In this document: positions 31,792 through 53,111 of the stretch, piece by piece | Position numbering within the stretch: the stretch's first letter is position 1 | How the letters are laid out: each line of letters opens with the position of its first letter | Assembly: GCA_025456085.1 (NCBI GenBank) | Contig: JALOLF010000011.1 | Coordinates: 1 to 53,111 of the forward strand | DNA length: 53,111 bases | Source of the DNA: Acidimicrobiales bacterium | GTDB lineage: Bacteria > Actinomycetota > Acidimicrobiia > Acidimicrobiales > Acidimicrobilacustridaceae | Reading direction: 5' to 3' | The notes under the pieces: model-generated | What the model saw: the letters and a program-made list of their open reading frames with translations, nothing else | What the model was told of the DNA's origin: nothing | Database searches by the model: none | Position numbers and translations under genes: made by a program

Positions 31792-32805
31792 TCAGTCTCG
31801 GACGCGCAGCTCCCGGGAGACCTCGGTCAGGTCGTGGAGGTCGCCGATGGAGGTTGCGGTGGCGGTGGCGACGAACGCCAGGTCACGGTCCTCGTCCACC
31901 CAGTACTGCTGCTCCTGGTAGACGCGGTCCCCGTCCTCGGGGTCCCAGGTGTAGCGCACGACGTAGCCGTCGTCCCGGCCGAACACCTCGGTGGGGCCGT
32001 CGGACGCGAGCTGTTCGTAGCCGGCGAACTCATCCTCGATCAGGCCCGTGTTGTAGGACGCGTACTCCGAGCTGGACATGCCCGCGGCGTCCTCCGCCGT
32101 GAAGATGATGTTGGCCTGCTCGTCCGGCGACGTGATCGTCACGCTCTCCTGGTCGGTCTTCTCCTCCACCGACCAGCCCTCCGGCACGAAGAGCGCCAGG
32201 TTCTCGGTGCGGTAGGTGTCCCCTTCCGGTTCCTCCGGCACCGACGTCCCGGTCCCGTTCCCACCGTTGCCCGACGGGTCGACCGGGTCGGAGCCGCCGT
32301 CGTCGCCACCGAGCAGGGCCACCGCGCCGACGGCGACCAGTGCCACGAGGACGACCGCACCGAGGGCGCCGATGAGGACCAACGGCAGCGGGCGGCCGCC
32401 GCTGCGGCGCCGAACCTGCTCGGTTGACGACCACCCCTGGTCCTCCGGAGGCGGCTCCGGTGGCCGGTGCGGTGACCGGTCGTCGGTCGGCCGTGGCGGC
32501 AGCCCGAGGGCGGCCGCCCACGCGTCGAGCGCCCATCCGGCCTCGGCCACGCCGAGTCCCATCGCCGACATCAGGCGCTGCTCTCCGTCGGGAGGTCGGG
32601 TCCGGGTGCGAACCATCTCGGTGGCCACCCCGGCACGGGCGGCGTCGAGCACCAGCTCGAGCGACCGCCGGTCGTCGGTGGTCTCCACCATGACCAGATC
32701 GCTCAGCAACGCCCGGAGGCGCTCCGGGTCCGACGCCAGCTCAGGGCCGAAACGCCCGACCGCCTCGACGAGGGCACGTGCGACCTTGTTCGGCTCCCCA
32801 CCCAT
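31792..32805 (-). CDS. Adaptor-domain membrane protein A with PsbP/LpqN-like ectodomain
   Basis: 337 residues (ATG at 32805). Residues 1-105 form the shared adaptor domain (VGRFGPELASDPERLRALLS, VLDAARAGVATEM, WALDAWAAALGL). A Pro-rich basic linker leads to one membrane helix (140-166), then an acidic Gly/Pro linker and a C-terminal domain of about 140 residues starting TYRTENLALFVPEGWSVEEK, which resembles PsbP/DUF1795/LpqN-type secreted domains. No signal peptide precedes the helix, so the N-terminus should be cytoplasmic and the C-terminus outside. It is the last gene of the dynamin-dynamin-Hsp70-A unit, 44 bp downstream of the Hsp70-like gene. One of five proteins in the island with this N-terminal domain. 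Confidence 0.75.
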   Translation of the reverse strand: MGGEPNKVARALVEAVGRFGPELASDPERLRALLSDLVMVETTDDRRSLELVLDAARAGVATEMVRTRTRPPDGEQRLMSAMGLGVAEAGWALDAWAAALGLPPRPTDDRSPHRPPEPPPEDQGWSSTEQVRRRSGGRPLPLVLIGALGAVVLVALVAVGAVALLGGDDGGSDPVDPSGNGGNGTGTSVPEEPEGDTYRTENLALFVPEGWSVEEKTDQESVTITSPDEQANIIFTAEDAAGMSSSEYASYNTGLIEDEFAGYEQLASDGPTEVFGRDDGYVVRYTWDPEDGDRVYQEQQYWVDEDRDLAFVATATATSIGDLHDLTEVSRELRVRD

Positions 32806-32849
32806 GCCTGCCGAGACTACGCGCGGCGCGCGGCTCGCACCTACGGCGC

Positions 32850-34991
32850 TCAGCCACCCCGGATGCCCACCTGTGCGGCGAGCGGGGCGCACAGCTCCCA
32901 CACCGGGGCGCGACCCCGCCGTCGACCGCCCGCCGGCAGTCGACGCTGGAGCGACACCGCCAGCGTTCGACCCGACACCCGGCCGCAGGCCACGAAGCGA
33001 ACCGAGTGCTCGTCGAGCAGCGAGAGCCCCTCCCCGTCGAAGAGGCCGTCCAGCGACACGGCACCGGTGTGCTCCACCTGCCAGGCCCCCCGCCACGTCT
33101 CCCCGAGCACCGCCAGCACGTGCACCAGGCTCGGCAGCGGTCCCGGGTCGAGCTGGCGCACGTGCCAGAACCGCACGACCGCGAGGGGCGCCGGGGCACC
33201 GGGTGCCGGGTCGGCCCACGCCGCGGACAGCTCGGCGACGACCTTGGTGTCGGCCGGGATCCACGCCGCCACCCAGCACCCGAGCTCGCTCGGCTCCGGC
33301 CGGCCCGGCACCTGGGCGGTGTTGCGGCGCAGGACCGTCTCGGTGCCCCGGCGTCGCTCGACCTCGAGGCGCACGTCGTGGCCGTCGGTGGTGTGCACGA
33401 TCGCCACCTCCCGACCGTCGGCCCGGATCCCTTCCAGGCGCTCGACCGCACCGCCGAAGCCGGTGCCACCCGTGCGCTGCGCGTCCGTCATCCCCGGGGA
33501 GAGCAGCGGGCCCAGCGCCCGGGCCGGCTGCCACGTGGCCTGGAGCACGAACGAGGGCACGTCGGGGCCGGGGGTCGCCGCCACGGTGTAGCGCAACCGG
33601 CACAGCGGCGGAGGCGTCGCCAGCCCCAGCTGCCGGAGGGTCTCCGCCAGGCCCGCGACCGACAGCGCCAGGCCCGGCCGGTACCAGGCGCCGTCCAGAC
33701 GCCCCTGCGTCTGCGGGGTCCGGTCGTGGGTGGCCTCGCCCGCGGAGCCGGCGTCGTCGGGACCGGTCGTCTCGGAGCCGGTCGTGTCGGGGGCCTCATC
33801 GTCGGACGCACCGGACTGCGACACCGGGACGCTGACGGGCCCACGCGGCGACGGAGGGACGCCGGAGGAGCGGGTGACGTCGTCGGACACCGAGTCGGGG
33901 AGCACCTCGCCACTGGTGTCGATGTCGCTCGCCCGCAGGGCGCCGAGCGCCACGGCTCCCTTGGCGTCCCAGGCCAGCACCGGCTCGGGCGCCGGGGCGC
34001 CACGCGCCTCGCGCTCCAGGCGCGCCCACACGCGGGCGTGCACCAACGGCATGCGGGAGGAGTCACCCACCAGGTAGACGCCCACCAGGTCGCCCGCCCC
34101 GAGCCCGCAGCCGGCCACGCAGGTCCACAGCACGTCGACACAGCGGTCGACGAGCTCGGCGGCGACCGCCTCGAGCTCGTGGCGGGTGACGGTGACGGTG
34201 TGATCCCCCAGGCCGACCGGGAAGGAGGTCACCTCCGACAGCTGCTCCTTCGCGGCGCGCACGTCGCGGCGGAGCTGACGCAGGTCGCGCCGGTCGGCGA
34301 GCGTGACCGGCCGGCGGAGGCGCTCGGCGTCCGCAGCCGGCAACCGTTCGAGCACGAAGTCGAGGAGTCGGTCGTCGACGTCCTCGCCGCCGAGGGGGTC
34401 GACCCCGCTGGTCGGGCCGGCGAGCTCGAAGCCGCCGTTGCGCCACCGCACCACCGCGGCGTCGAAGGTCCCGCCGCCCCAGTCGAACACGGCCACGTGG
34501 GCCCCTTCACGGCGGCGCGCCCCATCCACCACCGCCACTGCGGCGGCCACGGGCTCGGGCACGAGCTCCGGCGCCGGCAGTCCGGCGGCCCGCGCGGCCT
34601 CGCCCAGCACACCGAGCTGGTGGGCCCCCCACGCGGCGGGATGGGTCAGCACCAGCCGATCGGGCGGCCCGCCCTGGCGCTGGAGCACAGGACCCAACGC
34701 CTGGGTCAGCACCTCGCCGACCGCGTCGACGATGCGCACGGGCCGACCCAGGGCCAGCACCGCCAGGCCGCGGGACAGGCTGCGCTTGGGGGTCGCCTCG
34801 TACCGGCCGGGCTCGGCTGCGGCCTGCCGGTCGGCCAGCACGCCGGCCAGGAGCCGATCGTCGAGCGCCACGACGCCCGAGGGCAGACGGGTGCCCTGGT
34901 CGCCGTGGCTCACCAAGGTCGCCTCTCCCCCGCTGCGCCAGGCGCTGCACGTCGCGGTGGTGCCGAAATCGACCGCCGCCTCCCAGCTCAC
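32850..34991 (-). CDS. Hsp70-like ATPase with non-canonical C-terminal domain
   Basis: 713 residues, GTG start at 34991 overlapping the dynamin stop (GTGA, 34988-34991). The N-terminal 370 residues form an actin/Hsp70 ATPase: phosphate 1 AAVDFGTTATCSAW, phosphate 2 VAVFDWGGGTFDAAVVRW, adenosine motif GVYLVGDSSRMPLVHARV. Instead of the usual substrate-binding domain there is an acidic, Ser/Thr-rich linker (about 385-450) and a region of about 260 residues that I do not recognise. This makes it an Hsp70-related signalling or assembly ATPase rather than a general DnaK. Linkage to two dynamin-like GTPases recalls loci around mycobacterial iniA/iniC, by analogy only. The linker could be a phosphorylation target of the island kinase. 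Confidence 0.85.
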   Translation of the reverse strand: MSWEAAVDFGTTATCSAWRSGGEATLVSHGDQGTRLPSGVVALDDRLLAGVLADRQAAAEPGRYEATPKRSLSRGLAVLALGRPVRIVDAVGEVLTQALGPVLQRQGGPPDRLVLTHPAAWGAHQLGVLGEAARAAGLPAPELVPEPVAAAVAVVDGARRREGAHVAVFDWGGGTFDAAVVRWRNGGFELAGPTSGVDPLGGEDVDDRLLDFVLERLPAADAERLRRPVTLADRRDLRQLRRDVRAAKEQLSEVTSFPVGLGDHTVTVTRHELEAVAAELVDRCVDVLWTCVAGCGLGAGDLVGVYLVGDSSRMPLVHARVWARLEREARGAPAPEPVLAWDAKGAVALGALRASDIDTSGEVLPDSVSDDVTRSSGVPPSPRGPVSVPVSQSGASDDEAPDTTGSETTGPDDAGSAGEATHDRTPQTQGRLDGAWYRPGLALSVAGLAETLRQLGLATPPPLCRLRYTVAATPGPDVPSFVLQATWQPARALGPLLSPGMTDAQRTGGTGFGGAVERLEGIRADGREVAIVHTTDGHDVRLEVERRRGTETVLRRNTAQVPGRPEPSELGCWVAAWIPADTKVVAELSAAWADPAPGAPAPLAVVRFWHVRQLDPGPLPSLVHVLAVLGETWRGAWQVEHTGAVSLDGLFDGEGLSLLDEHSVRFVACGRVSGRTLAVSLQRRLPAGGRRRGRAPVWELCAPLAAQVGIRGG

Positions 34992-36865
34992 GGACGGCTC
35001 CCGGCCGCGAGCGCGAGCTGCTCGACCCGGGCCAGGACCTGGCGGGCCGAGCGTGCGATCTTGTCGGCCCGGGTCGCCAGGGCCTGCAGCTCGGCGAGCT
35101 CCTTCTGCCGCTCGGCGCCGGTCGACTTGAGGCTGCGCTGCTCGGCGCGCAGCTCGTCCTCGCGCAGCCCGAGCCACTCGCTGAGCGCGAGGTTGACGAG
35201 CCGCTGCGCTTCGGCGCACCGGGTGTCGAGATGCTGACCGAGGTCGCGGGTCGCCATGTCGAGCCGCTGCACCAGCCAGGCCCGACCTTCGGTCGTGCGC
35301 AGCATCCGGCGTCGGAGGAACACGTTGGCGCTCAACATGCCGAGCGCCCCGACGACCGCGATCGGACCGAGCAACGGCGAGGTCGCTCCCACGGCGAAGG
35401 TCGCGAGCAGCCGCGCCAGGCCGCTGCCGCCGACGAGGCTCATGGGGAGCTGCACGAAGGCGTCGGGGCCCAGCTCGGGGCTGTGGACGTCGACCATGTC
35501 ACGCAGCTCGACCTCGGCGGTGGCCTGCGCGTCGACCCGGGCCATCGCCGCCACGAACAGCGGATCGTCGGCGACCGCACCCAGGCAGCTGCGCATGGCG
35601 TCGGCGAGTTTCGCGCCCAGCAGCTGGCTCACCTCCCCGGCGAGCGAGTCGAGCGCCAGCTCCACCGTTCCGCCGAGCTCGGCGGGCGTGACGGCCTTGG
35701 CCACCGCGGCGTCACCGGCGCGACGGATCTCTCGGATCTGGGTGTCGACGTGGAGGGCGAGCGCCTGGCGCACGGCCCGGATCTCGTGGGGCATCTGGGA
35801 CACGATGTGCTCGCGCCGGCGCCGCAGCGCCACCGACTCGTCGCTGATCTCCTCGGGAGTACGAGCCCGGACCGCCTCGAGAGCCATCACCCGCTGGGCC
35901 ACGATGCCGGCGACGCCCTCGGCCACCGACGCCACCGCCCGCAACCGCAGGTCGTGCACCCGCAGGGCACAGCGGTCCGCGACCTGCTCCCGCAGGACGT
36001 CCTCCAGCGCCGCCATGCCCGACAGGTCCCGCAGCAGCTCGCGCTCACGCTCGCCCAGGACGGTCGAGGCGAGCGCGTCACAGGCACGCCGCCCGGACAC
36101 GGCCACGACCGGTGCGTGCTCGAGGTGCGGCACCCGCTCGACGAGGCGCTGGCGGGCGGCCGCCACGGCGCGGTCCGCCGCGTCGCCGGGCGGGAGCTTG
36201 TCGACCATGTTGAGCGCGACCACCACCTCGGCGCGGTCGCCGACGACGTGGGTCAGGAACTGCGCCTCCGGCTCGGTGATCTGCGCGGTGACGTCGGTGA
36301 CGAAGAGCACCGCGTCGGCGAGACGCACCGCGGCCAGCGTGGTCTCGAGGTGCTCCCCCAGGAGCCCCCCGACGCCCGGCGTGTCGATGAGCGACAGCGT
36401 CGCCAGCAGCGGCGACGGCACCTCCACGCGGATGGGCGAGGGCGCCGGCAGACCCCGCTCGTCGCGGGGGACCTCCGGGTTGTCGGCTGCGCCGTCCACC
36501 GACACCCACCGCTCGAGCTGCTCGAGCGGCACCCGGGTCACGTCACCACCCGAGACGGCGGGGACGACGACGCACTCGTCGCCTCGGGTGAACAGCACGT
36601 AGGTGGCGGTCGCCAGCTCGCCGGCGACCGGCGACAGGCCGGGCCTGCCGAGCAGGGCGTTCACGAGCGTGCTCTTGCCACGCTTCGTCTCCCCCACGAC
36701 GACGACCACCGCCTCGGCGGGAGCGGCGGCGACGTCGTCGAGCAGGGTGTCGAAGGCGGCGCGCTCGTCAGGGCCGAGGGCCTTGGCCACGAGGTCACGG
36801 GCCATCTCGATGCCCCGATCCGTCGTGGCGCCGAGCTTGGCGGAGCCCACCGAGGCCTGCGTCAC
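34988..36865 (-). CDS. Dynamin-like GTPase 1 (IniA-type)
   Basis: 625 residues, GTG start at 36865 overlapping the upstream dynamin stop (36862-36865). GTPase motifs: G1 VVGETKRGKSTLVNALLG (about residues 57-74), G3 LIDTPGVGG, G4 ALNMVDKLP. A long helical region follows, with a hydrophobic stretch near residues 490-525 (LLATFAVGATSPLLGPIAVV) like the membrane paddle or transmembrane part of bacterial dynamins, then a coiled-coil C-terminus (ELRAEQRSLKSTGAERQKEL). Bacterial dynamins shape or repair membranes and usually work as pairs, as with the gene directly upstream. The family is clear; the cellular role here is inferred. Confidence 0.88.
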   Translation of the reverse strand: MTQASVGSAKLGATTDRGIEMARDLVAKALGPDERAAFDTLLDDVAAAPAEAVVVVVGETKRGKSTLVNALLGRPGLSPVAGELATATYVLFTRGDECVVVPAVSGGDVTRVPLEQLERWVSVDGAADNPEVPRDERGLPAPSPIRVEVPSPLLATLSLIDTPGVGGLLGEHLETTLAAVRLADAVLFVTDVTAQITEPEAQFLTHVVGDRAEVVVALNMVDKLPPGDAADRAVAAARQRLVERVPHLEHAPVVAVSGRRACDALASTVLGERERELLRDLSGMAALEDVLREQVADRCALRVHDLRLRAVASVAEGVAGIVAQRVMALEAVRARTPEEISDESVALRRRREHIVSQMPHEIRAVRQALALHVDTQIREIRRAGDAAVAKAVTPAELGGTVELALDSLAGEVSQLLGAKLADAMRSCLGAVADDPLFVAAMARVDAQATAEVELRDMVDVHSPELGPDAFVQLPMSLVGGSGLARLLATFAVGATSPLLGPIAVVGALGMLSANVFLRRRMLRTTEGRAWLVQRLDMATRDLGQHLDTRCAEAQRLVNLALSEWLGLREDELRAEQRSLKSTGAERQKELAELQALATRADKIARSARQVLARVEQLALAAGSRP

Positions 36866-38334
36866 GTGTCGTCTCCCGATCCGTCGGTGAGCTCGGCCCA
36901 CAGGTGGAGCAGGCTCTGCTGTGCGACGCGGGCGATGTCGCGCTCGCGGGCGGTGCCGGGGCCGTTGACCGCCGCCTGCCAGCGTGTCGCGCCCTGCCAG
37001 GCCAGGTCGGCCAACCCGGCCCGGTCCGTAGCCGGTGCGGCCCCGAGGCGCTCCTCGACGTCACGGACGGCGAGCAGCCGCCGCAGCTCGAGGAGCTGCT
37101 GCTCGTCGAAGCCCGTGTCCGCTCCGGCCAACTCCTCCAGTGCCGCCAGCTCGTCGAGGACGTGCAGCTCGGGCGAGACGCGCAACGACGCCACCAGCTC
37201 GCGCAGGCGGTCCTGATCGGCCGGGCCCGTGGTGGGCGCCCAGGCCAACCGCTCCAGCGCGCCGAGCGCGCTGCGGGCCTTGAGGGCATCGGCACGCCGG
37301 CGCAGGCCGTCGAGGCCGACCGCGAGCGCGTCGAAGCCGCTCCAGTCGAGCAGCCCCTGACGCAGCTTCTCCGCGTCGCGACCCGTGCGCTCCGCCAGCG
37401 CAAGCGCCTCGCGGACCCCGCCGAAGCCGAGCAGGCCGACCAGGCGCTGCCGCGTGTCGGCCTCGACCGGCGCGTCGAGGGTGGCGAAGAGCCCGGCGTC
37501 GAGGGTGAGCATCGCCCGACGCTCCTCGGGCTCCGCGGCGATGGCAGCGAGGGCGTCGACGTCGCCCTGCGTGAGCCGGCCGCACCGGCACGACGACGCC
37601 GCCAGGCCCGCCACGGGCACGACGCTCGCCGCGAGACCGCGGAGATCCTCCGCCATTCGGCCCGCCAGCCGTTCGGCGGCCGGCACGCCGCCGTCGACCT
37701 CGTCGGCCTTCGACAGCACGCCGAGGGTGGCCACGCCGGACCGGTCGCCGGTGGCGGTGAGGAAGCGGCGCAGGGCGTCGACGTCATCGGCCCGCACCGC
37801 CTGGTTCACCAGGAACAGCACCGCGTCGGCCCGTGCGCAGGCCGCGGCGGAGTCGTCGTCGAGGCCCAGGAAGCCGGCGGTGACCGCGGCGACGTCGTCG
37901 CGCACGGTGGACAGGCCGGGCGTGTCGACGACCTCGACGCCGGCCAGCGCCCGCGACGCCAGCTCGACCGTGACCTCGGCGACGTCGTGCTCGGGGATGG
38001 GCAGCGTGGTGGGCAGCCCGGTCTCGGGGCTCAGCCGCACCGGGGTCCGGCGTCCCCGTCGGTCGACCACGACGCCGCGCTCCACGGTCCCGCGCCGGAA
38101 GCGGGTGACGACCCGCGTGCACTCGGTGACGTCGGTCGGGGCGACGGCACGCCCCAGCAGCGCGTTGACGACCGTCGATTTGCCGGCTTTCAGACGGCCG
38201 GCGACGGCGACCACCAGGGGGCCGTCGGCGCGCTCGGCGACACGGGCCGCTGCGGCACGCGCCGCCGGGTCGAGCCCCGAGGCCATCGACCGGGCCGCCT
38301 CTGCCACCGCCGCACTCGCCGGGCCCACGCTCAC
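36862..38334 (-). CDS. Dynamin-like GTPase 2 (IniC-type)
   Basis: 490 residues, GTG start at 38334. GTPase motifs: G1 VAVAGRLKAGKSTVVNALLG (about residues 41-60), G3 EVVDTPGLSTVRDD, G4 GVLSKADEVDGG. The C-terminal half is helical with no obvious membrane helix, shorter than its partner, so it is probably the soluble member of a heterotypic pair, as IniC is to IniA. A TACTGT -10 box lies 8 bp before the GTG and there is no ribosome-binding site, suggesting a leaderless mRNA. First gene of the four-gene unit dynamin 2, dynamin 1, Hsp70-like, adaptor protein A, three of which are joined by GTGA overlaps. Confidence 0.87.
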   Translation of the reverse strand: MSVGPASAAVAEAARSMASGLDPAARAAAARVAERADGPLVVAVAGRLKAGKSTVVNALLGRAVAPTDVTECTRVVTRFRRGTVERGVVVDRRGRRTPVRLSPETGLPTTLPIPEHDVAEVTVELASRALAGVEVVDTPGLSTVRDDVAAVTAGFLGLDDDSAAACARADAVLFLVNQAVRADDVDALRRFLTATGDRSGVATLGVLSKADEVDGGVPAAERLAGRMAEDLRGLAASVVPVAGLAASSCRCGRLTQGDVDALAAIAAEPEERRAMLTLDAGLFATLDAPVEADTRQRLVGLLGFGGVREALALAERTGRDAEKLRQGLLDWSGFDALAVGLDGLRRRADALKARSALGALERLAWAPTTGPADQDRLRELVASLRVSPELHVLDELAALEELAGADTGFDEQQLLELRRLLAVRDVEERLGAAPATDRAGLADLAWQGATRWQAAVNGPGTARERDIARVAQQSLLHLWAELTDGSGDDT

Positions 38335-38342
38335 GGCCGCCG

Positions 38343-38348
38343 ACAGTA
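38343..38348 (-). promoter_or_regulatory. Candidate -10 element of the dynamin operon (leaderless)
   Basis: On the minus strand TACTGT is followed by 8 bp and then the GTG at 38334, with no ribosome-binding site. No good -35 box is visible. Confidence 0.45.
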
Positions 38349-38520
38349 CCGCCCGGATCGCGTCCCGAGCAGGAGCTGGGAACCCATCTGCTCGGCAGGG
38401 CACCCGGGACGGGACCCGCGGGTGACGGGGAGGGTGCGCCTCGACCGTCCCCGACCGACCACGGTGGCTACGCTGACCGTCGTCGAGGCAGCTCCTCGAT
38501 GCCGTCGGGTGGGAGGAACG

Positions 38521-38973
38521 GTGGACGAAGAAGTGGTGGTCTCGTGCGATCAGCTCCTGAAGTGGGACGCACCGAAGCGGAAGCAGACCGTGTTCAAGGC
38601 GAAGCTGGGGCGCCTGATCGTGACCAACGCCCGGGTCGTGTTCCTCTCGACGGGATCGAACGACCTCACCATGGGCAAGTTCGTCGCCGGTGCGACCGGG
38701 CTCCACTCGGTCGGCCTGCGCTCGTCGTCCACCGATCACCTCGACGCCTCGGCGCTGGGGGCCGAGGGAAGCCTCGAGATCCCGCTTCCCGCCGTGTCCG
38801 ACGTGTGGGTGAAGGGGATGTTCAAGGCGCTGACCATCGCCTACGACCTGGGTGCCGGCGAGCAGCACGCCACCTTCGCACCGAAGAACGGCCCCATCCC
38901 CGGCGGTGAGTCCTGGGTGCAGGTCATCAACGATGCGAAGGCGCAGTATCTCGCCGCGATGGGTGGTCAGTAG
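38521..38973 (+). CDS. PH/GRAM-like domain protein
   Basis: 150 residues, GTG start at 38521 with GGGAGGA upstream. The central LGRLIVTNARVVFLSTGSND pattern (a beta strand with VTN.RVVF) is typical of bacterial PH or GRAM-like domains, which bind lipids or proteins at the membrane. No signal peptide or helix. It is divergent from the dynamin operon across a 186-bp gap. A TACGCT box (38469-38474) is a possible -10. It may link the membrane to the dynamin/Hsp70 module; this is inference from position. Confidence 0.6.
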   Translation: MDEEVVVSCDQLLKWDAPKRKQTVFKAKLGRLIVTNARVVFLSTGSNDLTMGKFVAGATGLHSVGLRSSSTDHLDASALGAEGSLEIPLPAVSDVWVKGMFKALTIAYDLGAGEQHATFAPKNGPIPGGESWVQVINDAKAQYLAAMGGQ

Positions 38974-39454: not shown

Positions 39455-40282
39455 TCAGAGCTCTTCGCGCTCGTAGCGGACCACGGCGTCGATCTCCTCC
39501 GGGGTGAGCACGCCTTCGAAGGCCGGCATGGAGGATCGACCCTGCGTGACGACCTCGATGTGCTCCTCCTCGCTGAGGCGGGATTCGACGTCTTGGAGGT
39601 TCGACCCGACACCGCCCCGACCGCGCTGGCCGTGGCACGCGGCGCACGTTTCCTGGTAGACGTCGAGACCTCGGGCGAGCACCGGGTCCTCGGGTCGGGA
39701 CGTCCCCGAACTCGACCCGCCGGCCTCCTCCTCCGTGGTCGGGGCGCCCGCGCCGCCGTCGGCGACGGAGGTGTCGTCCCCGGCCCGAAGCAGCCACCAC
39801 ACCAGACCCGCCGCGAGCAGGACGAGCACAACGGCCACCGAGACGGCGATCAGCAGGGCGGCGCGACCCGACCCGGCCGCGTCCGCCAGCGGCGGACGGA
39901 CCACGCCGACGTCCGGCACCAGCCCGGAGTGAGCACCGACGGGAGGCGACCCCGTCGCCACGTCCGTACCGATCCCGAGCGCCCGACACCAGGCACCGAC
40001 CGCCCACGCGGCGTCGGGCACGGTCACCTGGCAGCGGGTAGCCAGCCCCTGGGCGACACCCGGCAGAGCCCCGCCGGCCTGCACCAACTCGGCCACCACC
40101 CCGCTCCCGGCCGCCTCGACGACGAGTCGCAGCGCGAGCCGGTCGTCGTTCGACGTCGGCGGAGCCAGGTCGGCCAGCACGGCATACAGCCGCTGAGGGT
40201 CCGATGCGATCCCCACCCTGAACCGGGCCACCGCCTCGTTCAGCGCCGCCTGCACCCGGGCCCGGCCCGTCCCCGCATCCAT
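39455..40282 (-). CDS. Adaptor-domain membrane protein B with cytochrome c ectodomain
   Basis: 275 residues, ATG at 40282 with a strong AGGAGGAG site. Residues 1-105 are the shared adaptor domain (VARFRVGIASDPQRLYAVLA, DLAPPTSNDDR, AWAVGAWCRALGI). One membrane helix spans 141-165. After a Ser/Glu-rich linker comes a monohaem cytochrome c: haem motif CAACH at 213-217 and a likely axial Met252 in SSMPAFEGVLT, then a C-terminal helix. Haem c attachment needs the domain outside the membrane, which fits an N-in/C-out topology. A haem domain fused to a cytoplasmic adaptor suggests redox or ligand sensing, or an electron-transfer tether. Last gene of the minus-strand run that starts at 44984; a 75-bp gap separates it from gene C. 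Confidence 0.85.
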   Translation of the reverse strand: MDAGTGRARVQAALNEAVARFRVGIASDPQRLYAVLADLAPPTSNDDRLALRLVVEAAGSGVVAELVQAGGALPGVAQGLATRCQVTVPDAAWAVGAWCRALGIGTDVATGSPPVGAHSGLVPDVGVVRPPLADAAGSGRAALLIAVSVAVVLVLLAAGLVWWLLRAGDDTSVADGGAGAPTTEEEAGGSSSGTSRPEDPVLARGLDVYQETCAACHGQRGRGGVGSNLQDVESRLSEEEHIEVVTQGRSSMPAFEGVLTPEEIDAVVRYEREEL

Positions 40283-45102: not shown

Positions 45103-46104
45103 TCAGTCGCCGTCGAGCTCTCCCTCGGGGCGCCGCCGAACCGGCAACGAACGCGACAGCGAGATGCGCCGGCTACGCGTCTCGAGCCCACCTGAGGGTT
45201 GCGCCGTGGTTGGATCCGGCGCAGGCACGGACCGCTCGTCAATGGAGTCCGAACCGGCCAGCAGGAGGGCCAGCGAGGCGTCGTCACCGCCGATCTCCGC
45301 CGGCTCGGCCAGCCAGTCCGGGATGCGCCGGTCGATCTCCTCGGGCGGGAAGCGGCGAACCCGGTCCGCGAGGTCGGCGCCCACCTGACGCCACCAGTCG
45401 CGGTCGACGAACGCCCCGCCGAACCCGTCGGTGCAGGCCAGGGCCACGGTGATGGGCTGTTCGCGCAGATCGACCACCCCCAGCCGCACCGAACGGAGCG
45501 GGTCGATCTGGGCCAGCGACGACGTCACGTTGGCCACGTTGCGGGGATCGTCGGGCAGCAGGCGCAGCGACGTCCCGTCCTCGGTCACGGCGAACACGTC
45601 GCCGTCGCCGATCTGGAGCACCCCGAGCCGCGCACCCCCGGCGCACAGCGCCACCAGCGTGGTGCCGTAGGCGAGCACGGTCGCCGCCTCGTCCAGCGCC
45701 CCGTCCGATCGGCCGAGCAGCTCGACCTCGTCGGCGTCGAAGGCGTGCCCGGCGGCGTCGTCGAGCACAGCACGGCGCCACTCCTGCACCAGGATCTCGC
45801 TCGCACGGCGCAGCTCCCGCTCCAGCTCCTCGACGCCCGTCGTGCTCGCGCAGGCGTCACGCAGCGCGTGCACCGCGAGCGTCGCAGCGAGGCGCGCGCC
45901 GGTGGCCGAACGAGGGCAACGCCGCGAGCCGTGACCGTCGGCGACCGCGGCGGCCGCCACGGGACCCACGCCGGTGGCCGCCACCGCGTCCTGGTTGGGC
46001 CGACCGTTGGTCACGTGGTTGCTACCGATGACCGATCCGGCGAGCGCGTGCCAGGCCCCCGTCACCGTGGGGCCGGGCACACCACCGGGAGCCACGTCAC
46101 TCAC
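45103..46104 (-). CDS. PP2C-family protein phosphatase
   Basis: 333 residues, GTG start at 46104 overlapping the vWA stop (46101-46104). PP2C metal-binding motifs are visible: GRPNQDAVAA (D39), AAVADGHGSRRCP (D56-G-H-G), VLQIGDGDVFAV, ALACTDGFGGAFV and EIGGDDASLALLL. This Mg2+/Mn2+-dependent Ser/Thr phosphatase would oppose the kinase across the divergent promoter. A basic C-terminal tail (SRRISLSRSLPVRRRPEGEL) could bind membrane or be modified. With the vWA protein and the kinase it makes a TerY-P-type triad, like E. coli yegI/yegK/yegL. The frame upstream of 46104 runs antisense-like into the vWA gene and is not included. Confidence 0.9.
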   Translation of the reverse strand: MSDVAPGGVPGPTVTGAWHALAGSVIGSNHVTNGRPNQDAVAATGVGPVAAAAVADGHGSRRCPRSATGARLAATLAVHALRDACASTTGVEELERELRRASEILVQEWRRAVLDDAAGHAFDADEVELLGRSDGALDEAATVLAYGTTLVALCAGGARLGVLQIGDGDVFAVTEDGTSLRLLPDDPRNVANVTSSLAQIDPLRSVRLGVVDLREQPITVALACTDGFGGAFVDRDWWRQVGADLADRVRRFPPEEIDRRIPDWLAEPAEIGGDDASLALLLAGSDSIDERSVPAPDPTTAQPSGGLETRSRRISLSRSLPVRRRPEGELDGD

Positions 46105-46808
46105 CACACGATCTGATCCGGGCCCGGGGCCGGAACCGACACCGGTGGCGTCGGCCCCTCCGCGCTGCTCGAGGGTGTGGGCCGTGACGCCGCCGCCACG
46201 GCCACCGTCGACACGAAGCGGATGGCCTGGGCGAGCTGGTCGGGGTTGTGGGCCGCCAGCGGTGCGATCTCGGGATGGCCGATGAAGTCCCGCAGCACGC
46301 CGAGGTTGGCGTCGCGCCCGATGGCCACCGCCCGTCGCACGGACTTCGCCCCCCACGGCTCGGCGAGGAGTCGCTCCAGGCCGACGCGGAACGACGGCTC
46401 GGAGGTGTTCGTCGGCTCGCCGTCGGAGACGAGCACGATGGCCGGCGCGTAGCCGCGCCCGTCCTCGGCCAGGGGACGCATCTGGCGGGCGAGCTCGTCG
46501 AGGGCCATGCCCAGCTCGGTGAGGCCCCCCGGTTCGGCTCCGACGTCACGCCACGACGCGCCGAACTGCTCGACCGGCGTCGGCGTGGGCACGACCCAGC
46601 GAACCGAGGACGAGAAGGTGGCGACCCGGACGAGCAGCTCCACACCCGGACTCGACCGGGAGGCGTCGAGGATGTGGGGGATCGACTCGCGCACCGCCAC
46701 GTTCAGCGCCTGGATCTTGCCGTCGGCCGCCATCGAACCCGAGACGTCGAGCAGCCAGATGAAGTGCAGCGGGCGTCGGGCCAGAACGCCGCCGAGACGA
46801 TCTCCCAC
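46101..46808 (-). CDS. von Willebrand factor A domain protein (TerY/YegL-like)
   Basis: 235 residues, GTG start at 46808 with GCAGGAGG upstream. The MIDAS metal site is intact: DVSGS at 21-25 (FIWLLDVSGSMAADGKIQAL), Thr97 in GGLTELGMALDE and Asp129 in VLVSDGEPTNTSEPS. After the vWA fold comes a Pro/Ser-rich tail. No signal peptide or membrane helix, so it is cytoplasmic. TerY-like vWA proteins are thought to act as scaffolds with a PP2C phosphatase and a kinase in stress responses; both partners are adjacent. It is transcribed away from the kinase gene across a 171-bp region with a candidate SARP site 69 bp upstream. Confidence 0.9.
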   Translation of the reverse strand: MGDRLGGVLARRPLHFIWLLDVSGSMAADGKIQALNVAVRESIPHILDASRSSPGVELLVRVATFSSSVRWVVPTPTPVEQFGASWRDVGAEPGGLTELGMALDELARQMRPLAEDGRGYAPAIVLVSDGEPTNTSEPSFRVGLERLLAEPWGAKSVRRAVAIGRDANLGVLRDFIGHPEIAPLAAHNPDQLAQAIRFVSTVAVAAASRPTPSSSAEGPTPPVSVPAPGPDQIVW

Positions 46809-46979: not shown

Positions 46980-48287
46980 ATGCCAGCCAGGAACGCTCGC
47001 GTGCAGGTGGAGAACGTGGGCATGGTCACCGTCTTGGACCTCCTCGGGCGGGGTGGGCAGGGCGAGGTCTACGAGGTGGCCGCCGACACCGGGCAGCGGT
47101 ACGCCCTGAAGTGGTACACGTCCTGGCCCGGTGGCCTGTGGGAGGCGCTCGAGTACCTGATCGAACGCGGCAGCCCGAGCCACCACTTCCTGTGGCCCGT
47201 GGGTCGGGCGGTCAGCCCCGGCGAGCACGGCTTCGGCTACCTCATGGCGCTGCGACCCCCCGCCTACCGGGGTCTGGCGGAGCTGGTCTTCGGCGACCGA
47301 GACGACCACTCGCCCCTCGACGTGTCGTTCCGCAGCACCGTGAACCTGGCCTTCCACCTGAGCCGTGCCCTGCTGCGCCTGCACGCCCTCGGCCTGTGCT
47401 ACCGGGACATCAACTTCGGCAACGTCTTCTTCCGACCCGACAACGGTGACGTGCTGGTGTGCGACAACGACAACGTCGGCATCGACGGCACCCCCAGCAC
47501 GATCGCCGGCACGCTGCAGTTCATGGCCCCCGAGGTCGTGCGCATGCTGCACCGAGTGGGTGGGACCGAGCCGGCCTGGCCCTCGGCGCGCACCGATCGC
47601 CACAGCCTGGCCGTGGCGCAGTTCTACATCCTGTGCGGATCGGACCCGCTCGAGGGCACCAAGACCCGCCACGGGCCCTTCGACGCCGACTGGGAGCTGG
47701 AGCACTACGGACTGCGTCCGTTGTTCGTGTTCGAACCCGACGACGACTCCAACCGACCCATGAGCGACGTCACCACGGCCTACTGGCAGCTCTACCCCAG
47801 CTTCGTGCGCACCCTGTTCCTGCGCGCCTTCGGGCCCGGGCTGCACGACCCCGACGCCCGTGTCCTGGAGAGCGAGTGGGCGACCGCGATGCTGGCGTTG
47901 CGCGACACCGCGGCGCGCTGCGCGTCGTGCTCGCAGACCTTCTTCGTCGACCCGGCCGCTCCCGATCGCCCCTGCGCCCGGTGCGGTGCGCCGACCAGCG
48001 GACCGCTGGTGATGGCCATCGGTCGACGACGGGTCGTCATCTCCCCCGACCAGCTGCTGTTCACCGACCACCTGGGCGGCGATCCCGACCTCGGCAGCCC
48101 GGTCGGCATCGTCGTGCCCCACCCCACCGAGCACCACCGCGTCGCCCTGCGCAACCTGACCGAGACCTCCTGGACGGCGACCACGGAAGCCGGCGACGTG
48201 CACGACGTGCCCCCCGGACGGGCCGTGGAGACCCTGCCCGGGCTGCGCATCCACTTCGGGCCGACCACCGGCGTCGTGGAACGATGA
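46980..48287 (+). CDS. Ser/Thr protein kinase with C-terminal zinc ribbon (YegI-like)
   Basis: 435 residues from the ATG at 46980 (GGGAGGA upstream). Kinase motifs: glycine loop LLGRGGQGEVYEV (23-28), Lys44 in YALKWYTSWP, catalytic loop CYRDINFGNVFF (D143, N148) and DND (162-164) in the DFG position, then AGTLQFMAPEVV. A zinc ribbon follows (C314, C317, C332, C335) and about 90 residues of beta-rich sequence. No membrane helix. The HRD/DFG changes (YRD, DND) retain the catalytic and metal-binding Asp, so activity is expected. It is divergent from vWA-PP2C and overlaps the FHA-ABC gene by ATGA, so it likely phosphorylates FHA ligands in this locus. Confidence 0.9.
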   Translation: MPARNARVQVENVGMVTVLDLLGRGGQGEVYEVAADTGQRYALKWYTSWPGGLWEALEYLIERGSPSHHFLWPVGRAVSPGEHGFGYLMALRPPAYRGLAELVFGDRDDHSPLDVSFRSTVNLAFHLSRALLRLHALGLCYRDINFGNVFFRPDNGDVLVCDNDNVGIDGTPSTIAGTLQFMAPEVVRMLHRVGGTEPAWPSARTDRHSLAVAQFYILCGSDPLEGTKTRHGPFDADWELEHYGLRPLFVFEPDDDSNRPMSDVTTAYWQLYPSFVRTLFLRAFGPGLHDPDARVLESEWATAMLALRDTAARCASCSQTFFVDPAAPDRPCARCGAPTSGPLVMAIGRRRVVISPDQLLFTDHLGGDPDLGSPVGIVVPHPTEHHRVALRNLTETSWTATTEAGDVHDVPPGRAVETLPGLRIHFGPTTGVVER

Positions 48288-50788
48288 CGACGCTCTCGGT
48301 GCAGATCGAGGGCCGCTCCCTGGTGCTCGCGCCCGGCCAGGTGCTCACGGTCGGCCGGGCCCCCGAGAACACCGTCATCCTCGGCGACGAGCGCGTCAGC
48401 CGCAGTCACGGCACCGTGCGGTGGGCCGACGGCGGGTGGACCTTCGAGGACCACTCCAGCCAGGGCACCTACCTCGAGGGGCACCGGGTGCACCGCATCA
48501 CCATCGACCGGCCGCTCGCCCTGCGCCTCGCCCATCCCGGGTCCGGTCCGGTCCTGGTCGTGCAGCCGAGCCCGCGAGACGAGGTCGCCCGGCCCCCCGC
48601 GCCGGCCCCCCATGCACCGTTCCCACCATCGGCGCCGTCGTCGTATCCGACGCCCGGCCCCACGCCCGGTGGACCCGGCGCACCAGCGGTACCCGAGGGT
48701 CAAGGAGGAGCGGGGGGACCGGGTGTCGCCGGCAACCGCGTGTCGCAGGTGCTGTCGAGCGTCGCCCTTCCTCCCCGGGGCGGGACCGGTGTGCTGCGCA
48801 TCGGTCGGGCCCCGGACAACGACATCGTGATCAGCGACGACCTCACCGTGTCCCGCTACCACGCGGAGCTGCGCCAGCTCCCCAGCGCCGTCGAGCTCGC
48901 CGACCTGCGCTCGCGCACCGGCACCTTCGTCGACGGGCGGCGCATCTCTCGAGTCGCCCTGCGACCCGGGCAGTTCGTGCGCATCGGGCGGCGCCTCTTC
49001 ACCCTCGAGGGCCGGCGCCTCGTGGAGTTCCGCGACGACACCGCCACCCTCGCCGCCCGGGATCTCGTGGTCGAGGTGGAAGGCGGCCGGCGACTGCTCG
49101 ACGGCGTCAGCTTCGTGGCCGAACCCCGACAGGTGATCGCGGTGATCGGCCCCTCGGGGGCGGGCAAGTCCACCCTCATGCGGGCCCTCACCCGACCGTC
49201 GTCGCTGTCGGGAGGCCAGGTGCTCTACAACGGCCAGGACCTGGCCGGCACCCTCGAGGACGTCCGCTCCCGGATGGGGGTGCTCCCCCAGGACGACATC
49301 ATCCACCCGCAGCTGCGCACCGAGCAGGCCCTCGCCTACGCCGCGGCGCTGCGCTTCTCCAGCGACACAACCGCCGCCGAGCGCCGCCAGCGCGTCCACC
49401 AGGTGCTCGCCGACCTCGACCTCGACGCGCCGCAGCACGCCCGGCTACCCATCGAGCGGCTCTCCGGCGGCCAACGCAAGCGGGCCTCCCTGGCCCTCGA
49501 GCTGCTCACCCGACCGGCGCTGCTGCTGTGCGACGAGCCGACGACCGGCCTGGACCTGCACCGCGAGCGGGAGGTCATGCAGCTCTTCCGGACGCTCGCC
49601 GACGGCGGTCGCACCGTCATCGTGATCACGCACTCCGTCGCCAGCCTGGACCTGTGCGACCGGGTGCTGTGCCTGGCTCCCGGTGGGAAGCCGGCGTACT
49701 TCGGGCCCCCCGATCGGGCTCTGGGCTACTTCGGGGTCACCGACTGGGTGCAGCTGTTCGGGCTGTTGGACCAACCACGCGACTGGCGCTCCCAGTTCCT
49801 GGCGTCGGCGGACTTCGAGCACTACGTCGCCCGACCGATCGCCGCCCAGCAGGCCGTCCCCCCGCTGGGCGGTTCAGGACGGCGTCCCCGTCGGGCCAGC
49901 ACCGTGAGCCAGCTCACCACCCTGTCCCGACGCAACGCCGCCGTCATCGCCGGCAACCGGTCGCACGCCCTGCTGCTGGCCGCCCAAGCGCCGCTCATCG
50001 GCCTGCTCATCGTCGCGGCTCTCGGCAGGGCCAACCTCGCACCCGGCGGCCTCGGCTCGTCCACCTCACCACGGGCCCTGGCGCTGGTGCTGGCCCTGTC
50101 GGCTGTCGCCATCGGTCTGGTCAACTCGTGCCGCGAGATCGTGCGCGAGCGACCCATCTACCAGCGCGAGCACGCCGTGGGCCTGTCCCGTTCGGCGTAC
50201 CTCGCCTCGAAGGTGGTGACGCTCGGCGTCCTGGTGCTCGTGCAGGCCGCGTTGTTGGCCCTGGTCGTGCTGCCGGGTCAGAAGGGCCCGCCCGACGCGC
50301 TGTTCGTCGACCCGCCGGTGCTGGAGCTGACGCTCATCCTGTTCGCCACCGGGTTCGCGGCGGTGGCCATGGGCCTGGCGGTGTCCGCGCTCGTCGGCTC
50401 CGATGCCGCCGCGCTGGTCGCCGTCCCGGTGCTGCTGGTCGCACAGCTCGTGCTGGGCGGCGGCTTCCTGGTGGTGGACGGGCGCCCGGTCCTCGAGCAG
50501 GTGGCGTGGACGACGCCCACGTACTGGGGCACACGGGCCCTGGCCGCCTCCGCCGACGTGAAGACCCTGGAGGGCCGGTGCGAGGCCAACGCCTCGATCG
50601 ACCGGGCGGAGCTCGACCCCGACACCCGGCGGCTGGTGGTCGGCTTCATCGGCAACGTGCCCTGCCCGTCGGGCTGGAACCACGACCGGGGCCAGCTCGG
50701 GCTGGCGCTCGGCGGCCTGGCCGTGGTGGGCGTCGGCTACCTCGCGGTCGCCCACTGGGGACTGCGGCGCAAGGACCGGGATCGCTGA
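48284..50788 (+). CDS. Double-FHA ABC exporter (Rv1747-like)
   Basis: 834 residues, ATG overlapping the kinase stop (48284-48287). Two FHA domains (about 15-95 and 165-245), each with GRAP(E/D)N and the SR.H signature (VSRSHGTV, VSRYHAEL), read phospho-threonine. A Pro-rich linker separates them. The ABC ATPase has Walker A GPSGAGKS (289-296), signature LSGGQ (393-397) and Walker B LLLCDEPT (413-420). The C-terminal 290 or so residues form a six-helix ABC-2 membrane domain with an extracytoplasmic Cys-containing loop. The domain order is that of M. tuberculosis Rv1747, a lipid exporter regulated by a kinase through its FHA domains. Here the kinase gene is directly upstream and coupled, which suggests direct control of transport. 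Confidence 0.92.
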   Translation: MTTLSVQIEGRSLVLAPGQVLTVGRAPENTVILGDERVSRSHGTVRWADGGWTFEDHSSQGTYLEGHRVHRITIDRPLALRLAHPGSGPVLVVQPSPRDEVARPPAPAPHAPFPPSAPSSYPTPGPTPGGPGAPAVPEGQGGAGGPGVAGNRVSQVLSSVALPPRGGTGVLRIGRAPDNDIVISDDLTVSRYHAELRQLPSAVELADLRSRTGTFVDGRRISRVALRPGQFVRIGRRLFTLEGRRLVEFRDDTATLAARDLVVEVEGGRRLLDGVSFVAEPRQVIAVIGPSGAGKSTLMRALTRPSSLSGGQVLYNGQDLAGTLEDVRSRMGVLPQDDIIHPQLRTEQALAYAAALRFSSDTTAAERRQRVHQVLADLDLDAPQHARLPIERLSGGQRKRASLALELLTRPALLLCDEPTTGLDLHREREVMQLFRTLADGGRTVIVITHSVASLDLCDRVLCLAPGGKPAYFGPPDRALGYFGVTDWVQLFGLLDQPRDWRSQFLASADFEHYVARPIAAQQAVPPLGGSGRRPRRASTVSQLTTLSRRNAAVIAGNRSHALLLAAQAPLIGLLIVAALGRANLAPGGLGSSTSPRALALVLALSAVAIGLVNSCREIVRERPIYQREHAVGLSRSAYLASKVVTLGVLVLVQAALLALVVLPGQKGPPDALFVDPPVLELTLILFATGFAAVAMGLAVSALVGSDAAALVAVPVLLVAQLVLGGGFLVVDGRPVLEQVAWTTPTYWGTRALAASADVKTLEGRCEANASIDRAELDPDTRRLVVGFIGNVPCPSGWNHDRGQLGLALGGLAVVGVGYLAVAHWGLRRKDRDR

Positions 50789-50806
50789 GGACCCCGCCGC
50801 GCCGTG

Positions 50807-50822: not shown

Positions 50823-50828
50823 TGCCGG

Positions 50829-52016
50829 TCACGGGGCCTGGCGGGTGGCGGCGGGACGGGCGCCCGGGTCGGGGAGGTCGCTGCGCCGGTCGGCCGACGA
50901 CGGGTCGTGGAAGAACACCACCGTCCCGCCGAGCCGGAGCCAGTCGCCGTCGCGGAGCGGGCCGGCTTCGCCGACGGGGAGGTCGTTGTGGACCGTCCCG
51001 TTGGTCGACCCGCAGTCGCGCACCTCCCAGCCGCCGGCGCCCGCTCGGACCTCGGCGTGGCGTCGTGAGACCCGGTCGTCCCACCCCAGCACGACCGTGT
51101 TGTCCGACGCCCGGCCGAGCGTGACCACGCGGCCGGGGTCCAGCCCCACCCGCTTCGCCCGGCCCTCCGGATCGAGCCAGGTGAGCGTGGCCCGCGCCTC
51201 AGCGGACTCGTCGTCGGGCAGCAGCGACGCCGACTGCACGAGGATCTGCTGCTCCAATCGGCGCAGCCCGGGGCCCGGGTCGGCGCCGATCTCCTCGAGC
51301 AGCACCGCACGCGCCTGCTGGTAGGCGCGCAGGGCGTCGGCCTGGCGTCCACCGCGGTACAACGCCAGGATCAGCTGCTCCCACAGGCGCTCCCGCAGCG
51401 GATGGCGCGCCGTCAGCTCGCGCAGCTCGGCCACCAGCTCGGTCGAGCGCCCGGCCGCCAGGTCGGCATCGATCCGGTCCTCGAAGGCGGCGGCGCGCAG
51501 CTCCTCCAACCGCCAGCGGCGCGGGTCGAGCGCCAGCGTCTCGGCGAGGTCCGACGCCGGCGCATCGTCGCGCCACAGCGCCAACGCCTCTCGGAGCAGC
51601 CGCGCCGCCCCGGTGGGGTCGTCGACGCGACGCGACCGGGCCGCCGCCAGCAGCTCCTCGAAGCGGACCACGTCGACCGTCACGATGGCCGGGTCGAGCA
51701 GATAGCCGGGCGGACGGGACCGCAGCGCCTCGCGCCCCGCGGGGCCGAGGACGTTGCGCAGGTTCGACACGTAGACCTGCAGGGTGCCCTTCGAGCGGTT
51801 GACCGCGTCGTCGCCCCACACCGCTTCGCCGAGCTCCTCGGCCGACACCACCCGACCGCCCGCCAGGGCCAGAACCGCCAGCACGGCGCGCTGGCGCGCC
51901 CCACCGGCAGACACCGGCCGGCCGTCGACGCGGACCTCCACCGGGCCCAGCACCAGCACCTCCCCCCGCTGCGCCGGTTCGACGATCGTCGATCGACTGG
52001 CCTGTGGCTGGTCCAC
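50829..52016 (-). CDS. SARP-family regulator with C-terminal FHA domain (EmbR-like)
   Basis: 395 residues, GTG start at 52016 (GAGGAGGAG upstream). About residues 15-110 form the OmpR-type winged helix of SARPs (RQRAVLAVLALAGGRVVSAE, TLQVYVSNLRNVLGPAGREA); 115-265 the bacterial transcriptional activation domain of helical repeats; 290-375 an FHA domain (VVTLGRASDNTVVLGWDDRV, SRRHAEV, CGSTNGTVHN). EmbR of M. tuberculosis has the same order and responds to kinase PknH. It probably binds 11-bp direct repeats such as those at 45047 and 46877, controlled by the island kinase through its FHA domain. Divergent from adaptor gene E. Confidence 0.92.
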   Translation of the reverse strand: MDQPQASRSTIVEPAQRGEVLVLGPVEVRVDGRPVSAGGARQRAVLAVLALAGGRVVSAEELGEAVWGDDAVNRSKGTLQVYVSNLRNVLGPAGREALRSRPPGYLLDPAIVTVDVVRFEELLAAARSRRVDDPTGAARLLREALALWRDDAPASDLAETLALDPRRWRLEELRAAAFEDRIDADLAAGRSTELVAELRELTARHPLRERLWEQLILALYRGGRQADALRAYQQARAVLLEEIGADPGPGLRRLEQQILVQSASLLPDDESAEARATLTWLDPEGRAKRVGLDPGRVVTLGRASDNTVVLGWDDRVSRRHAEVRAGAGGWEVRDCGSTNGTVHNDLPVGEAGPLRDGDWLRLGGTVVFFHDPSSADRRSDLPDPGARPAATRQAP

Positions 52017-52105
52017 CCTCGTCTCCTCCTCGGCACAGATCGGCGCGCGATCCTGACCCCGGGCTGCACGCTGTTCCCTCGGGCACCTGCACCTACTCCA
52101 CCACG

Positions 52106-52111
52106 TAGGCT
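52106..52111 (+). promoter_or_regulatory. Candidate -10 element of adaptor gene E (leaderless)
   Basis: TAGGCT is followed by 7 bp and the ATG at 52119, with no ribosome-binding site. No clear -35 box. Confidence 0.45.
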
Positions 52112-52118
52112 CGCCGCG

Positions 52119-53111
52119 ATGTCGATGGGCGGCAACCCCGGTTCAGCATCGCTGGCCCTACGCGAGGCCGTGCGACGGTTCGGTCCGGGCCTGGCCTCCG
52201 AACCCGCCCAGCTCCGGGCCGTGCTCGGCGATCTGGCCCCGCCGACCGGCGCCACGGAACGCGCCGCCCTGGACGCGCTCGTCGAGACGGCCCGCAGCGG
52301 CGTCGCCGCAGAACTGGTCGTCGGTCGCGCCCGGCCTCCGGGCATCGAACAGCGCCTGGCCGCCCTCACGGGACTCACGCCCGAGTGGGCGACCTGGTGC
52401 GTGGACACCTGGTGCGCCGCCCTCGGCATCGGGTCCGGCCTGACGGGGCCGGCCACCACACCGCTCCGGCCCGGCCCCACGACCTCCGCCGTCGATCCGG
52501 GGGACCGAGCCGGGCAGCGGGACGCCACGGGCCGTTCCGGCACCCGCATCGCCCTGGTGGTCGGCGCGGCGCTGAGTGTCGCCGCGCTCGTCGGGGTCGT
52601 CGCCGTGCTCCGGCTCGGCGGCGACAACGGTGCCGGAGACGACCCCGACACCGAGGCACCGCCGTCGGTGTCCAACTCGGACCACTGGCACACCGCGTAC
52701 GGCGTCCACGTGTGCGACACCTTCCAGGAGCCCATCCCCGATCAGGGCACCGACCCCGTGGGCATCCACACCCACGGTGACGGGGTGATCCACATCCACC
52801 CCTTCTCGGAGGCCTCCTCGGGCGACAACGCGCAGCTCTACCACTTCACCGACCTGAAGACCAACGGCGACGACTGCAACGGCGAACCCGGCACCTGGAA
52901 GCTGCTGTGGTGGCCCGCCGACGACCTCGGCGCCGAGGCCATCGTGCGCACCGACATCGACAGCTTCGGCGACTTCCGCTTCCCCGAGGACCGCGGCGCG
53001 CTCACCCTGGCCTTCGTGCCCGACAGCACCGACGTCAACGGCCTGCGGCCGCCGACCGTGGGCGAGCTCGACTCGCTCAGCGACGTCGCCAACGACCCCG
53101 ACGCCGGCGGC
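52119..53111 (+). CDS. Adaptor-domain membrane protein E with His-rich ectodomain (3' end beyond window)
   Basis: 331 codons, open to the right edge. Residues about 10-105 are the shared adaptor domain (VRRFGPGLASEPAQLRAVLG, DLAPPTGATER, WCVDTWCAALGI). A Pro/Thr/Asp linker leads to a membrane helix (143-166), then an acidic linker and an ectodomain starting SNSDHWHTAYGVHVCDTF, then GIHTHGDGVIHIHPF. Clustered His (HWH, HTH, HIH) suggests metal binding, a motif I recall from other actinobacterial secreted or membrane proteins of unknown function. Several Cys could form disulfides. It is divergent from the SARP-FHA gene and probably leaderless. Confidence 0.75.
   Translation, partial: MSMGGNPGSASLALREAVRRFGPGLASEPAQLRAVLGDLAPPTGATERAALDALVETARSGVAAELVVGRARPPGIEQRLAALTGLTPEWATWCVDTWCAALGIGSGLTGPATTPLRPGPTTSAVDPGDRAGQRDATGRSGTRIALVVGAALSVAALVGVVAVLRLGGDNGAGDDPDTEAPPSVSNSDHWHTAYGVHVCDTFQEPIPDQGTDPVGIHTHGDGVIHIHPFSEASSGDNAQLYHFTDLKTNGDDCNGEPGTWKLLWWPADDLGAEAIVRTDIDSFGDFRFPEDRGALTLAFVPDSTDVNGLRPPTVGELDSLSDVANDPDAGG

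What the first reader, a model, noticed from the sequence alone, without database searches (positions are those of the whole stretch)
31792..53111. Undescribed multi-component system: five membrane proteins with one cytoplasmic adaptor domain and five different ectodomains
Genes at 31792-32805, 39455-40282, 40358-41287, 43968-44984 and 52119-53111 share a ~100-residue N-terminal domain (consensus parts RFGxxLAxxPxQLRAVLxDLAPP, LVVxxAxxGVxxEL, WxVxxWCxALGI) that I cannot name. Each has one membrane helix (residues about 120-166) and a different extracytoplasmic domain: PsbP/LpqN-like, cytochrome c, cupredoxin-like, acidic, His-rich. They are interleaved with a kinase, PP2C, vWA, AAA+, Hsp70-like, two dynamins, FHA-ABC and SARP-FHA genes. 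A common adaptor with swapped sensors looks like a modular receptor family feeding one signalling core.
Basis: partly seen in the sequence, partly recalled or inferred. Interest (0 to 1): 0.93.

Follow-up and report, generated by a model that had tools for sequence, protein, structure and literature searches.

The report
Interchangeable sensors on one kinase switch
This bacterial gene cluster carries six predicted membrane proteins that share one small domain but differ in the part predicted to lie outside the cell, and because the same domain sits beside one kinase, phosphatase and vWA gene trio in many kinds of bacteria, it likely plugs interchangeable input modules into a common phosphorylation switch.

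Summary
Five window genes share a ~95-residue N-terminal domain (leave-one-out E 4e-13 to 8e-33), each followed by one predicted membrane helix and a different C-terminal region. A sixth copy (RCC1 repeats) lies on contig C52, whose first 99 bases equal the window's last 99. The domain matched no Pfam or NCBIfam family (0 of 86 members) and has a confident all-helical AlphaFold2 model (pLDDT 96) with no significant PDB match.

In a domain-first scan of 248 genomes of the order, 10 of 15 matches outside this genome lie within 6.3 kb of a window-type kinase; 3 more sit at contig ends. A kinase-first scan (capped at 80 loci) found the domain in 58 of 80 loci and in 52 of 66 complete vWA-PP2C-kinase triads, with FGE, ankyrin, LRR, WD40 and other partners.

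The triad fits the published TerY-P type; the kinase tail adds an FHA-like fold. Hsp70, AAA+ and dynamins are not conserved parts. I read the domain as a docking adaptor joining swappable input modules to this phospho-switch, likely read out here by FHA proteins. Docking, sensing and phosphorylation are inferred. Outside the order most domain proteins (46 of 68) lack a membrane helix.

The parts
31795..32805 (-). Adaptor-domain membrane protein A; domain 32494-32805; ectodomain weakly DcrB/PsbP-like
39458..40282 (-). Adaptor-domain membrane protein B; domain 39965-40282; ectodomain cytochrome c (CAACH)
40361..41287 (-). Adaptor-domain membrane protein C; domain 40982-41284; ectodomain without a family match
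43971..44984 (-). Adaptor-domain membrane protein D (most divergent domain); domain 44628-44942; ectodomain without a family match
52119..53111 (+). Adaptor-domain membrane protein E, cut by contig end; domain 52119-52436; continues on contig C52 (overlap 99 bases) and ends in an FKBP domain
46104..46808 (-). Stand-alone vWA protein (DVSGS motif), first gene of the triad
45106..46107 (-). PP2C phosphatase (PF13672 1e-32), overlaps the vWA gene by 4 bases
46980..48284 (+). Ser/Thr kinase with zinc ribbon (CASC..CARC) and C-terminal FHA-like fold
48284..50785 (+). FHA-FHA-ABC exporter (Rv1747-like architecture); stop of kinase overlaps its start; likely phospho-reader
50832..52016 (-). SARP-FHA transcription regulator, best PDB sequence match EmbR (2fez, 2.9e-46); likely phospho-reader
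42716..43960 (-). TPR-AAA+ ATPase (CDC48/FtsH-like AAA); local addition, not conserved with the triad
41358..42719 (-). TPR protein with hydrophobic stretches; local addition
32853..34991 (-). Hsp70-like protein; local addition, not conserved with the triad
34991..36865 (-). Dynamin-like GTPase 1 (PADLOC LeoBC profile 1.4e-26); local addition
36865..38403 (-). Dynamin-like GTPase 2 (PADLOC LeoA profile 8.5e-16); local addition

Best explanation
The proteins share a ~95-residue N-terminal domain, predicted all-helical, that recurs beside a vWA-PP2C-Ser/Thr-kinase triad of the TerY-P type in many bacterial phyla, and it likely docks interchangeable input modules, here six predicted membrane sensors, onto that kinase/phosphatase switch. 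Shown: the domain, its recurrence with the triad, the swapped partner domains, the FHA-bearing neighbours in this lineage. Inferred: each ectodomain senses a different envelope cue (haem/redox state for the cytochrome c one, protein-folding state for the FKBP one, unknown for the others); the cytosolic domain binds the vWA or the kinase; binding shifts the kinase-PP2C balance; phosphothreonine is then read by the FHA-FHA-ABC exporter and the EmbR-like SARP-FHA regulator, changing export and transcription. The Hsp70, dynamin, AAA+ and TPR genes are lineage-specific additions.
For: Domain homology in the window and to distant members (hhalign probability 98.9). Domain-first, order: 15 of 248 genomes; of 15 matches outside this genome 10 lie 0.25-6.3 kb from a window-type kinase, 3 at contig ends, 2 unlinked. 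Kinase-first, order: all 12 kinase-positive genomes of 198 are domain-positive. Kinase-first, all genomes: domain in 58 of 80 loci, 52 of 66 complete triads; 74 domain ORFs, all on the kinase strand; median gap to the nearest triad gene 4 bp over 58 loci. Of 10 domain matches away from the loci used to choose 24 genomes, 6 lie at a second triad; the 4 genomes whose kinase locus lacks the domain have none anywhere. Partner variety: 138 Pfam families in 71 proteins; several different partners in one locus, e.g. FGE x3 + ankyrin in L077. Domain and kinase distances correlate (r 0.80, 57 loci). Confident model. Kinase tail FHA-like. SARP-FHA matches EmbR; FHA-ABC by Pfam.
Against: No interaction, sensing or phosphorylation was tested. 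Counts are inflated by related records: at 60% kinase identity 21 of 34 clusters have the domain, and 19 of 28 with a triad. 22 of 80 loci and 14 of 66 triads lack it; one of the 58 (L126) rests on E 5e-4; four of the 58 are the order's own records again. Triads without the domain: G377, G505. Domain without kinase: G012, G130 (weak), G250, G363 and 4 places. Most non-order domain proteins have no membrane helix (46 of 68). FHA genes are rare outside the order, and in L039 and L045 the FHA match was not confirmed by Pfam. No protein carries both the domain and a triad domain, so no fusion supports direct contact. The same-strand rule does not hold in the window or in L033, L036, L038. 22 of 94 long kinases lack the zinc-ribbon pattern. 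Distance correlation is weaker than within the triad (0.86-0.95) and may only show joint inheritance.
Confidence: 0.6

Rival explanations
1. The domain recruits effectors or substrates rather than sensors: the TerY-P-type triad switches on attached modules in a conflict or defence response, and the membrane proteins are outputs held at the membrane.
For: TerY-P triads are linked to defence in print (PMC11090510, passages). Partner domains elsewhere include FGE, SH3, Sel1, LRR, WD40 and ankyrin, which may bind targets as well as signals. Effector-associated domains are a published precedent (PMC7159879 section 30).
Against: The window's ectodomains (cytochrome c, FKBP, RCC1) and topology look like periplasmic input or binding modules; the listed Pfam partners (25 of 138 families shown) are repeats and binding folds rather than toxins or nucleases; PADLOC gave no hit for two of these proteins.
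Confidence: 0.25
2. One machine: kinase core, AAA+, Hsp70, two dynamins and five receptors act together.
For: Most genes from 46808 down to 31795 lie on one strand, several overlapping; protein A follows the Hsp70 gene by 47 bases.
Against: Window Hsp70, AAA+, TPR, SARP and DYN1 are found in 0 of 80 and DYN2 in 1 of 80 kinase loci, and in none of the 19 order stretches at E 1e-6; DYN1 relatives in 5 of 198 order genomes, the other four not domain-positive. A ~1 kb stretch without an obvious gene separates the dynamins from protein B.
Confidence: 0.1
3. Recent gene duplication only: a locally amplified membrane protein family next to an unrelated kinase locus.
For: Copies A, B, C, E, F are closely alike in this genome and only this genome has six.
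Against: The single-copy relatives are linked to the same triad in distant phyla, and multi-copy loci with different partners occur elsewhere (11 of 80 loci).
Confidence: 0.05

Closest known systems
TerY-P triad (vWA + PP2C + Ser/Thr kinase with C-terminal zinc ribbon; definition seen in PMC11090510 passages; Anantharaman 2012 and Gao 2020 cited there, not seen)
   Same: The three genes, the MIDAS-like DVSGS motif and the zinc ribbon are present in the window.
   Different: Adds an unnamed adaptor domain on swappable modules, six times here; kinase tail continues into an FHA-like fold.
Kinase-zinc ribbon-beta-strand-rich domain + PP2C + vWA theme of GAP1-N2 systems (PMC7159879 section 29)
   Same: Same trio, actinobacteria; its 'beta-strand-rich domain' may be the FHA-like tail modelled here (inference).
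   Different: I did not search for GAP1 or its GTPases; no adaptor domain is mentioned in that section.
Effector-associated domains, EADs (PMC7159879 section 30)
   Same: Small, non-enzymatic, helical (predicted), fused to varied modules, several copies per locus.
   Different: No copy fused to a core component, so the homotypic EAD rule is not met.
M. tuberculosis EmbR and Rv1747 (FHA proteins that are kinase substrates; substrate roles recalled)
   Same: SARP-FHA matches EmbR over residues 18-363; FHA-FHA-ABC architecture by Pfam.
   Different: Here both sit beside one soluble zinc-ribbon kinase and the adaptor array.
Type VI secretion threonine-phosphorylation pathway PpkA/PppA/Fha with Tag sensors (recalled)
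   Same: Kinase, PP2C, FHA reader and envelope inputs.
   Different: Different proteins; no type VI comparison was run.

Membership tests
TerY-P triad | TerY-like stand-alone vWA domain | tested here: met
   PF13519 2.9e-6, DVSGS at residue 21
TerY-P triad | PP2C phosphatase | tested here: met
   PF13672 1e-32
TerY-P triad | Ser/Thr kinase with C-terminal zinc ribbon | tested here: met
   PF00069 1.7e-11; CASC/CARC; four Cys invariant in 56 tails chosen for having CxxC. 22 of 94 long relatives lack the pattern
TerY-P triad | tellurite or anti-phage function | not testable with these tools
   needs experiment
Effector-associated domain (EAD) | one copy fused to a core component | tested here: not met
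   no ORF in the 102 loci matches the domain and a vWA, PP2C or kinase profile
Effector-associated domain (EAD) | small non-enzymatic domain fused to varied modules | tested here: met
GAP1-N2 kinase theme | GAP1 and its GTPase in the neighbourhood | not tested
   no GAP1 profile was searched
EmbR-like SARP-FHA regulator | Trans_reg_C + BTAD + FHA | tested here: met
FHA domain (kinase tail) | FHA fold | tested here: met
FHA domain (kinase tail) | phosphothreonine-binding residues | not tested
   no Pfam FHA match for this kinase; residues not compared

The most novel reading that the evidence does not exclude
An unnamed helical adaptor defines a phylum-spanning, plug-in phospho-signalling architecture: any module that carries it joins a common vWA-PP2C-kinase switch by hetero-docking, and one actinobacterium has built a six-channel envelope sensor array on it with FHA exporter and transcription outputs.
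Probability: 0.55. Interest if true: 0.85.

Novelty: new variant of a known kind. Interest (0 to 1): 0.72.

Why it matters
TerY-P-type triads are widespread but what feeds or leaves them is unclear. A short domain that marks their partners gives a handle: every protein that carries it is a candidate input or output of the switch, which turns an open question (what do these triads sense?) into a list of testable proteins in cultured, harmless bacteria.

Full report
OBSERVATION. The five genes are ORFs at the stated places (starts chosen by me). Their N-terminal ~100 residues align. Leave-one-out profiles recover the fifth copy among 335 window ORFs with E 3.6e-13 to 8.3e-33 and list nothing else. 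Each has one hydropathy-predicted membrane helix with more K+R on the N side. The genome search found six copies with E below 1e-36, five of them the model's own sequences, and five weak matches (E 0.01 to 0.76) that I did not pursue. The sixth is on contig C52 and carries RCC1 repeats. C52 begins with the last 99 bases of the window and completes gene E with an FKBP domain. So six copies stand in one cluster, if the 99-base overlap is a true junction.

LINKAGE, DOMAIN FIRST. In 248 genomes of the order 15 have the domain at E 0.001. Outside the window's genome there are 15 matches in 14 genomes. Ten lie on one contig with a window-type kinase at 0.25 to 6.3 kb: G044, G075, G079, G118, G121, G154, G184, G209, G213, G237. 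Three lie at contig ends (G131 once, G228 twice). Two have no such kinase in the genome: G250 and G130, the latter weak. An earlier narrower search of 61 relatives also gave G012, whose genome (71% complete) has no such kinase, and a marginal G050.

LINKAGE, KINASE FIRST. In 198 order genomes 12 have the kinase at E 1e-30, and all 12 are domain-positive. Their titles name Gammaproteobacteria, Chloroflexota, Acidobacteria, Lachnospiraceae, Synergistaceae, Bacteroidota, Treponema, Actinobacteria and others. An iterated domain profile (88 ORFs in round 0 over 102 loci, 92 at the end) is present in 58 of 80; vWA in 66, PP2C in 68, all three triad genes in 66, triad plus domain in 52. One of the 58 (L126) is weak, and four (L092, L093, L109, L114) repeat order genomes whose relatives helped seed the profile. 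All 74 domain ORFs lie on the kinase strand; the median gap to the nearest triad gene is 4 bp, 51 of 58 within 500 bp. Of 41 loci with 5 kb or more on both sides 33 have it. After clustering kinases at 60% identity it is in 21 of 34 clusters, and in 19 of 28 with a triad. Triads without it occur: 14 of 66 here, and G377 and G505.

WHOLE GENOMES. In 24 genomes (20 chosen with the domain at the kinase locus, 4 without) the domain gave 45 matches. By coordinates 35 are at the locus used for the choice. Of the other 10, six lie at a second triad and four at none within the fetched ~20 kb. The four genomes chosen as lacking it have no match at all. The unbiased figure is thus 6 of 10, not 41 of 45.

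MODULARITY. In 71 domain proteins (a selection, four from the window) Pfam matches 138 families; among the 25 shown are LRR (9), FGE (6), beta helix (5), SH3 (4), WD40 (3) and ankyrin (3). Eleven of 80 loci have two or more domain proteins. In L077 they carry FGE, FGE, ankyrin and FGE; in L083 FGE, PCP_red and FGE; in L099 Sel1, LRR and one without a match. Outside the order 46 of 68 domain ORFs have no predicted membrane helix. So the adaptor is general and its use in membrane proteins is one version, seen in the order and in some other loci.

OUTPUT SIDE. Nine order stretches (L030-L038) have phmmer matches to the window's FHA proteins. Pfam confirmed FHA in the four of these that I scanned (L030, L031, L034, L038) and not in L039 and L045. 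Elsewhere FHA is rare (labels FHA 6 and FHA-ABC 9 of 80; two of the latter, L062 and L131, are ABC only). The FHA readout is therefore an actinobacterial reading. L038 and the cyanobacterial-titled L084 fuse FHA with a PrsW protease (phylum of L084 recalled).

LOCAL ADDITIONS. Searched with the window proteins, Hsp70, AAA+, TPR, SARP and DYN1 label 0 and DYN2 1 of 80 loci; none labels an ORF in the 19 order stretches, apart from SARP hits that are FHA matches. DYN1 relatives are in 5 of 198 order genomes; the four others are not domain-positive.

MECHANISM. Most likely: ectodomain senses, adaptor docks on vWA or kinase, kinase/PP2C balance shifts, FHA proteins read the mark. Every step of this chain is inferred; what is shown is homology, linkage, topology prediction and partner swapping. 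The main rival is that the attached modules are outputs. Papers: PMC11090510 and PMC7517822 passages; PMC7159879 passages and sections 29 and 30; others only as listings.

Noticed in passing
window right end / G000:C52:1-99: The contig of the window overlaps contig C52 by 99 identical bases, so the cluster continues for at least 6 kb.
   Followed up: yes
G000:C52 (L047) 3875-4384 +: Small protein with weak EF-hand matches (3e-4, below cut-off) just before the sixth adaptor protein.
   Followed up: partly
L047 1270-3624 -: 785-aa open frame without a Pfam match between genes E and F of the cluster.
   Followed up: partly
34991-38403: The dynamin pair matches the PADLOC LeoBC and LeoA profiles, next to an Hsp70-like gene.
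   Followed up: partly
L038 4672-6258, L084 7371-8912: FHA domain fused to a PrsW intramembrane protease near the triad.
   Followed up: no
L106 13080-19910: A 2277-aa protein with two tandem adaptor domains, followed by another with two.
   Followed up: no
38404-39457: About 1 kb between the dynamins and the cytochrome gene without an obvious gene; GC 0.71.
   Followed up: partly
3334-12047: By eye from the translations, RNase E/G, RodA, PBP2 and MreD-like genes: ordinary cell-shape genes; not searched.
   Followed up: no
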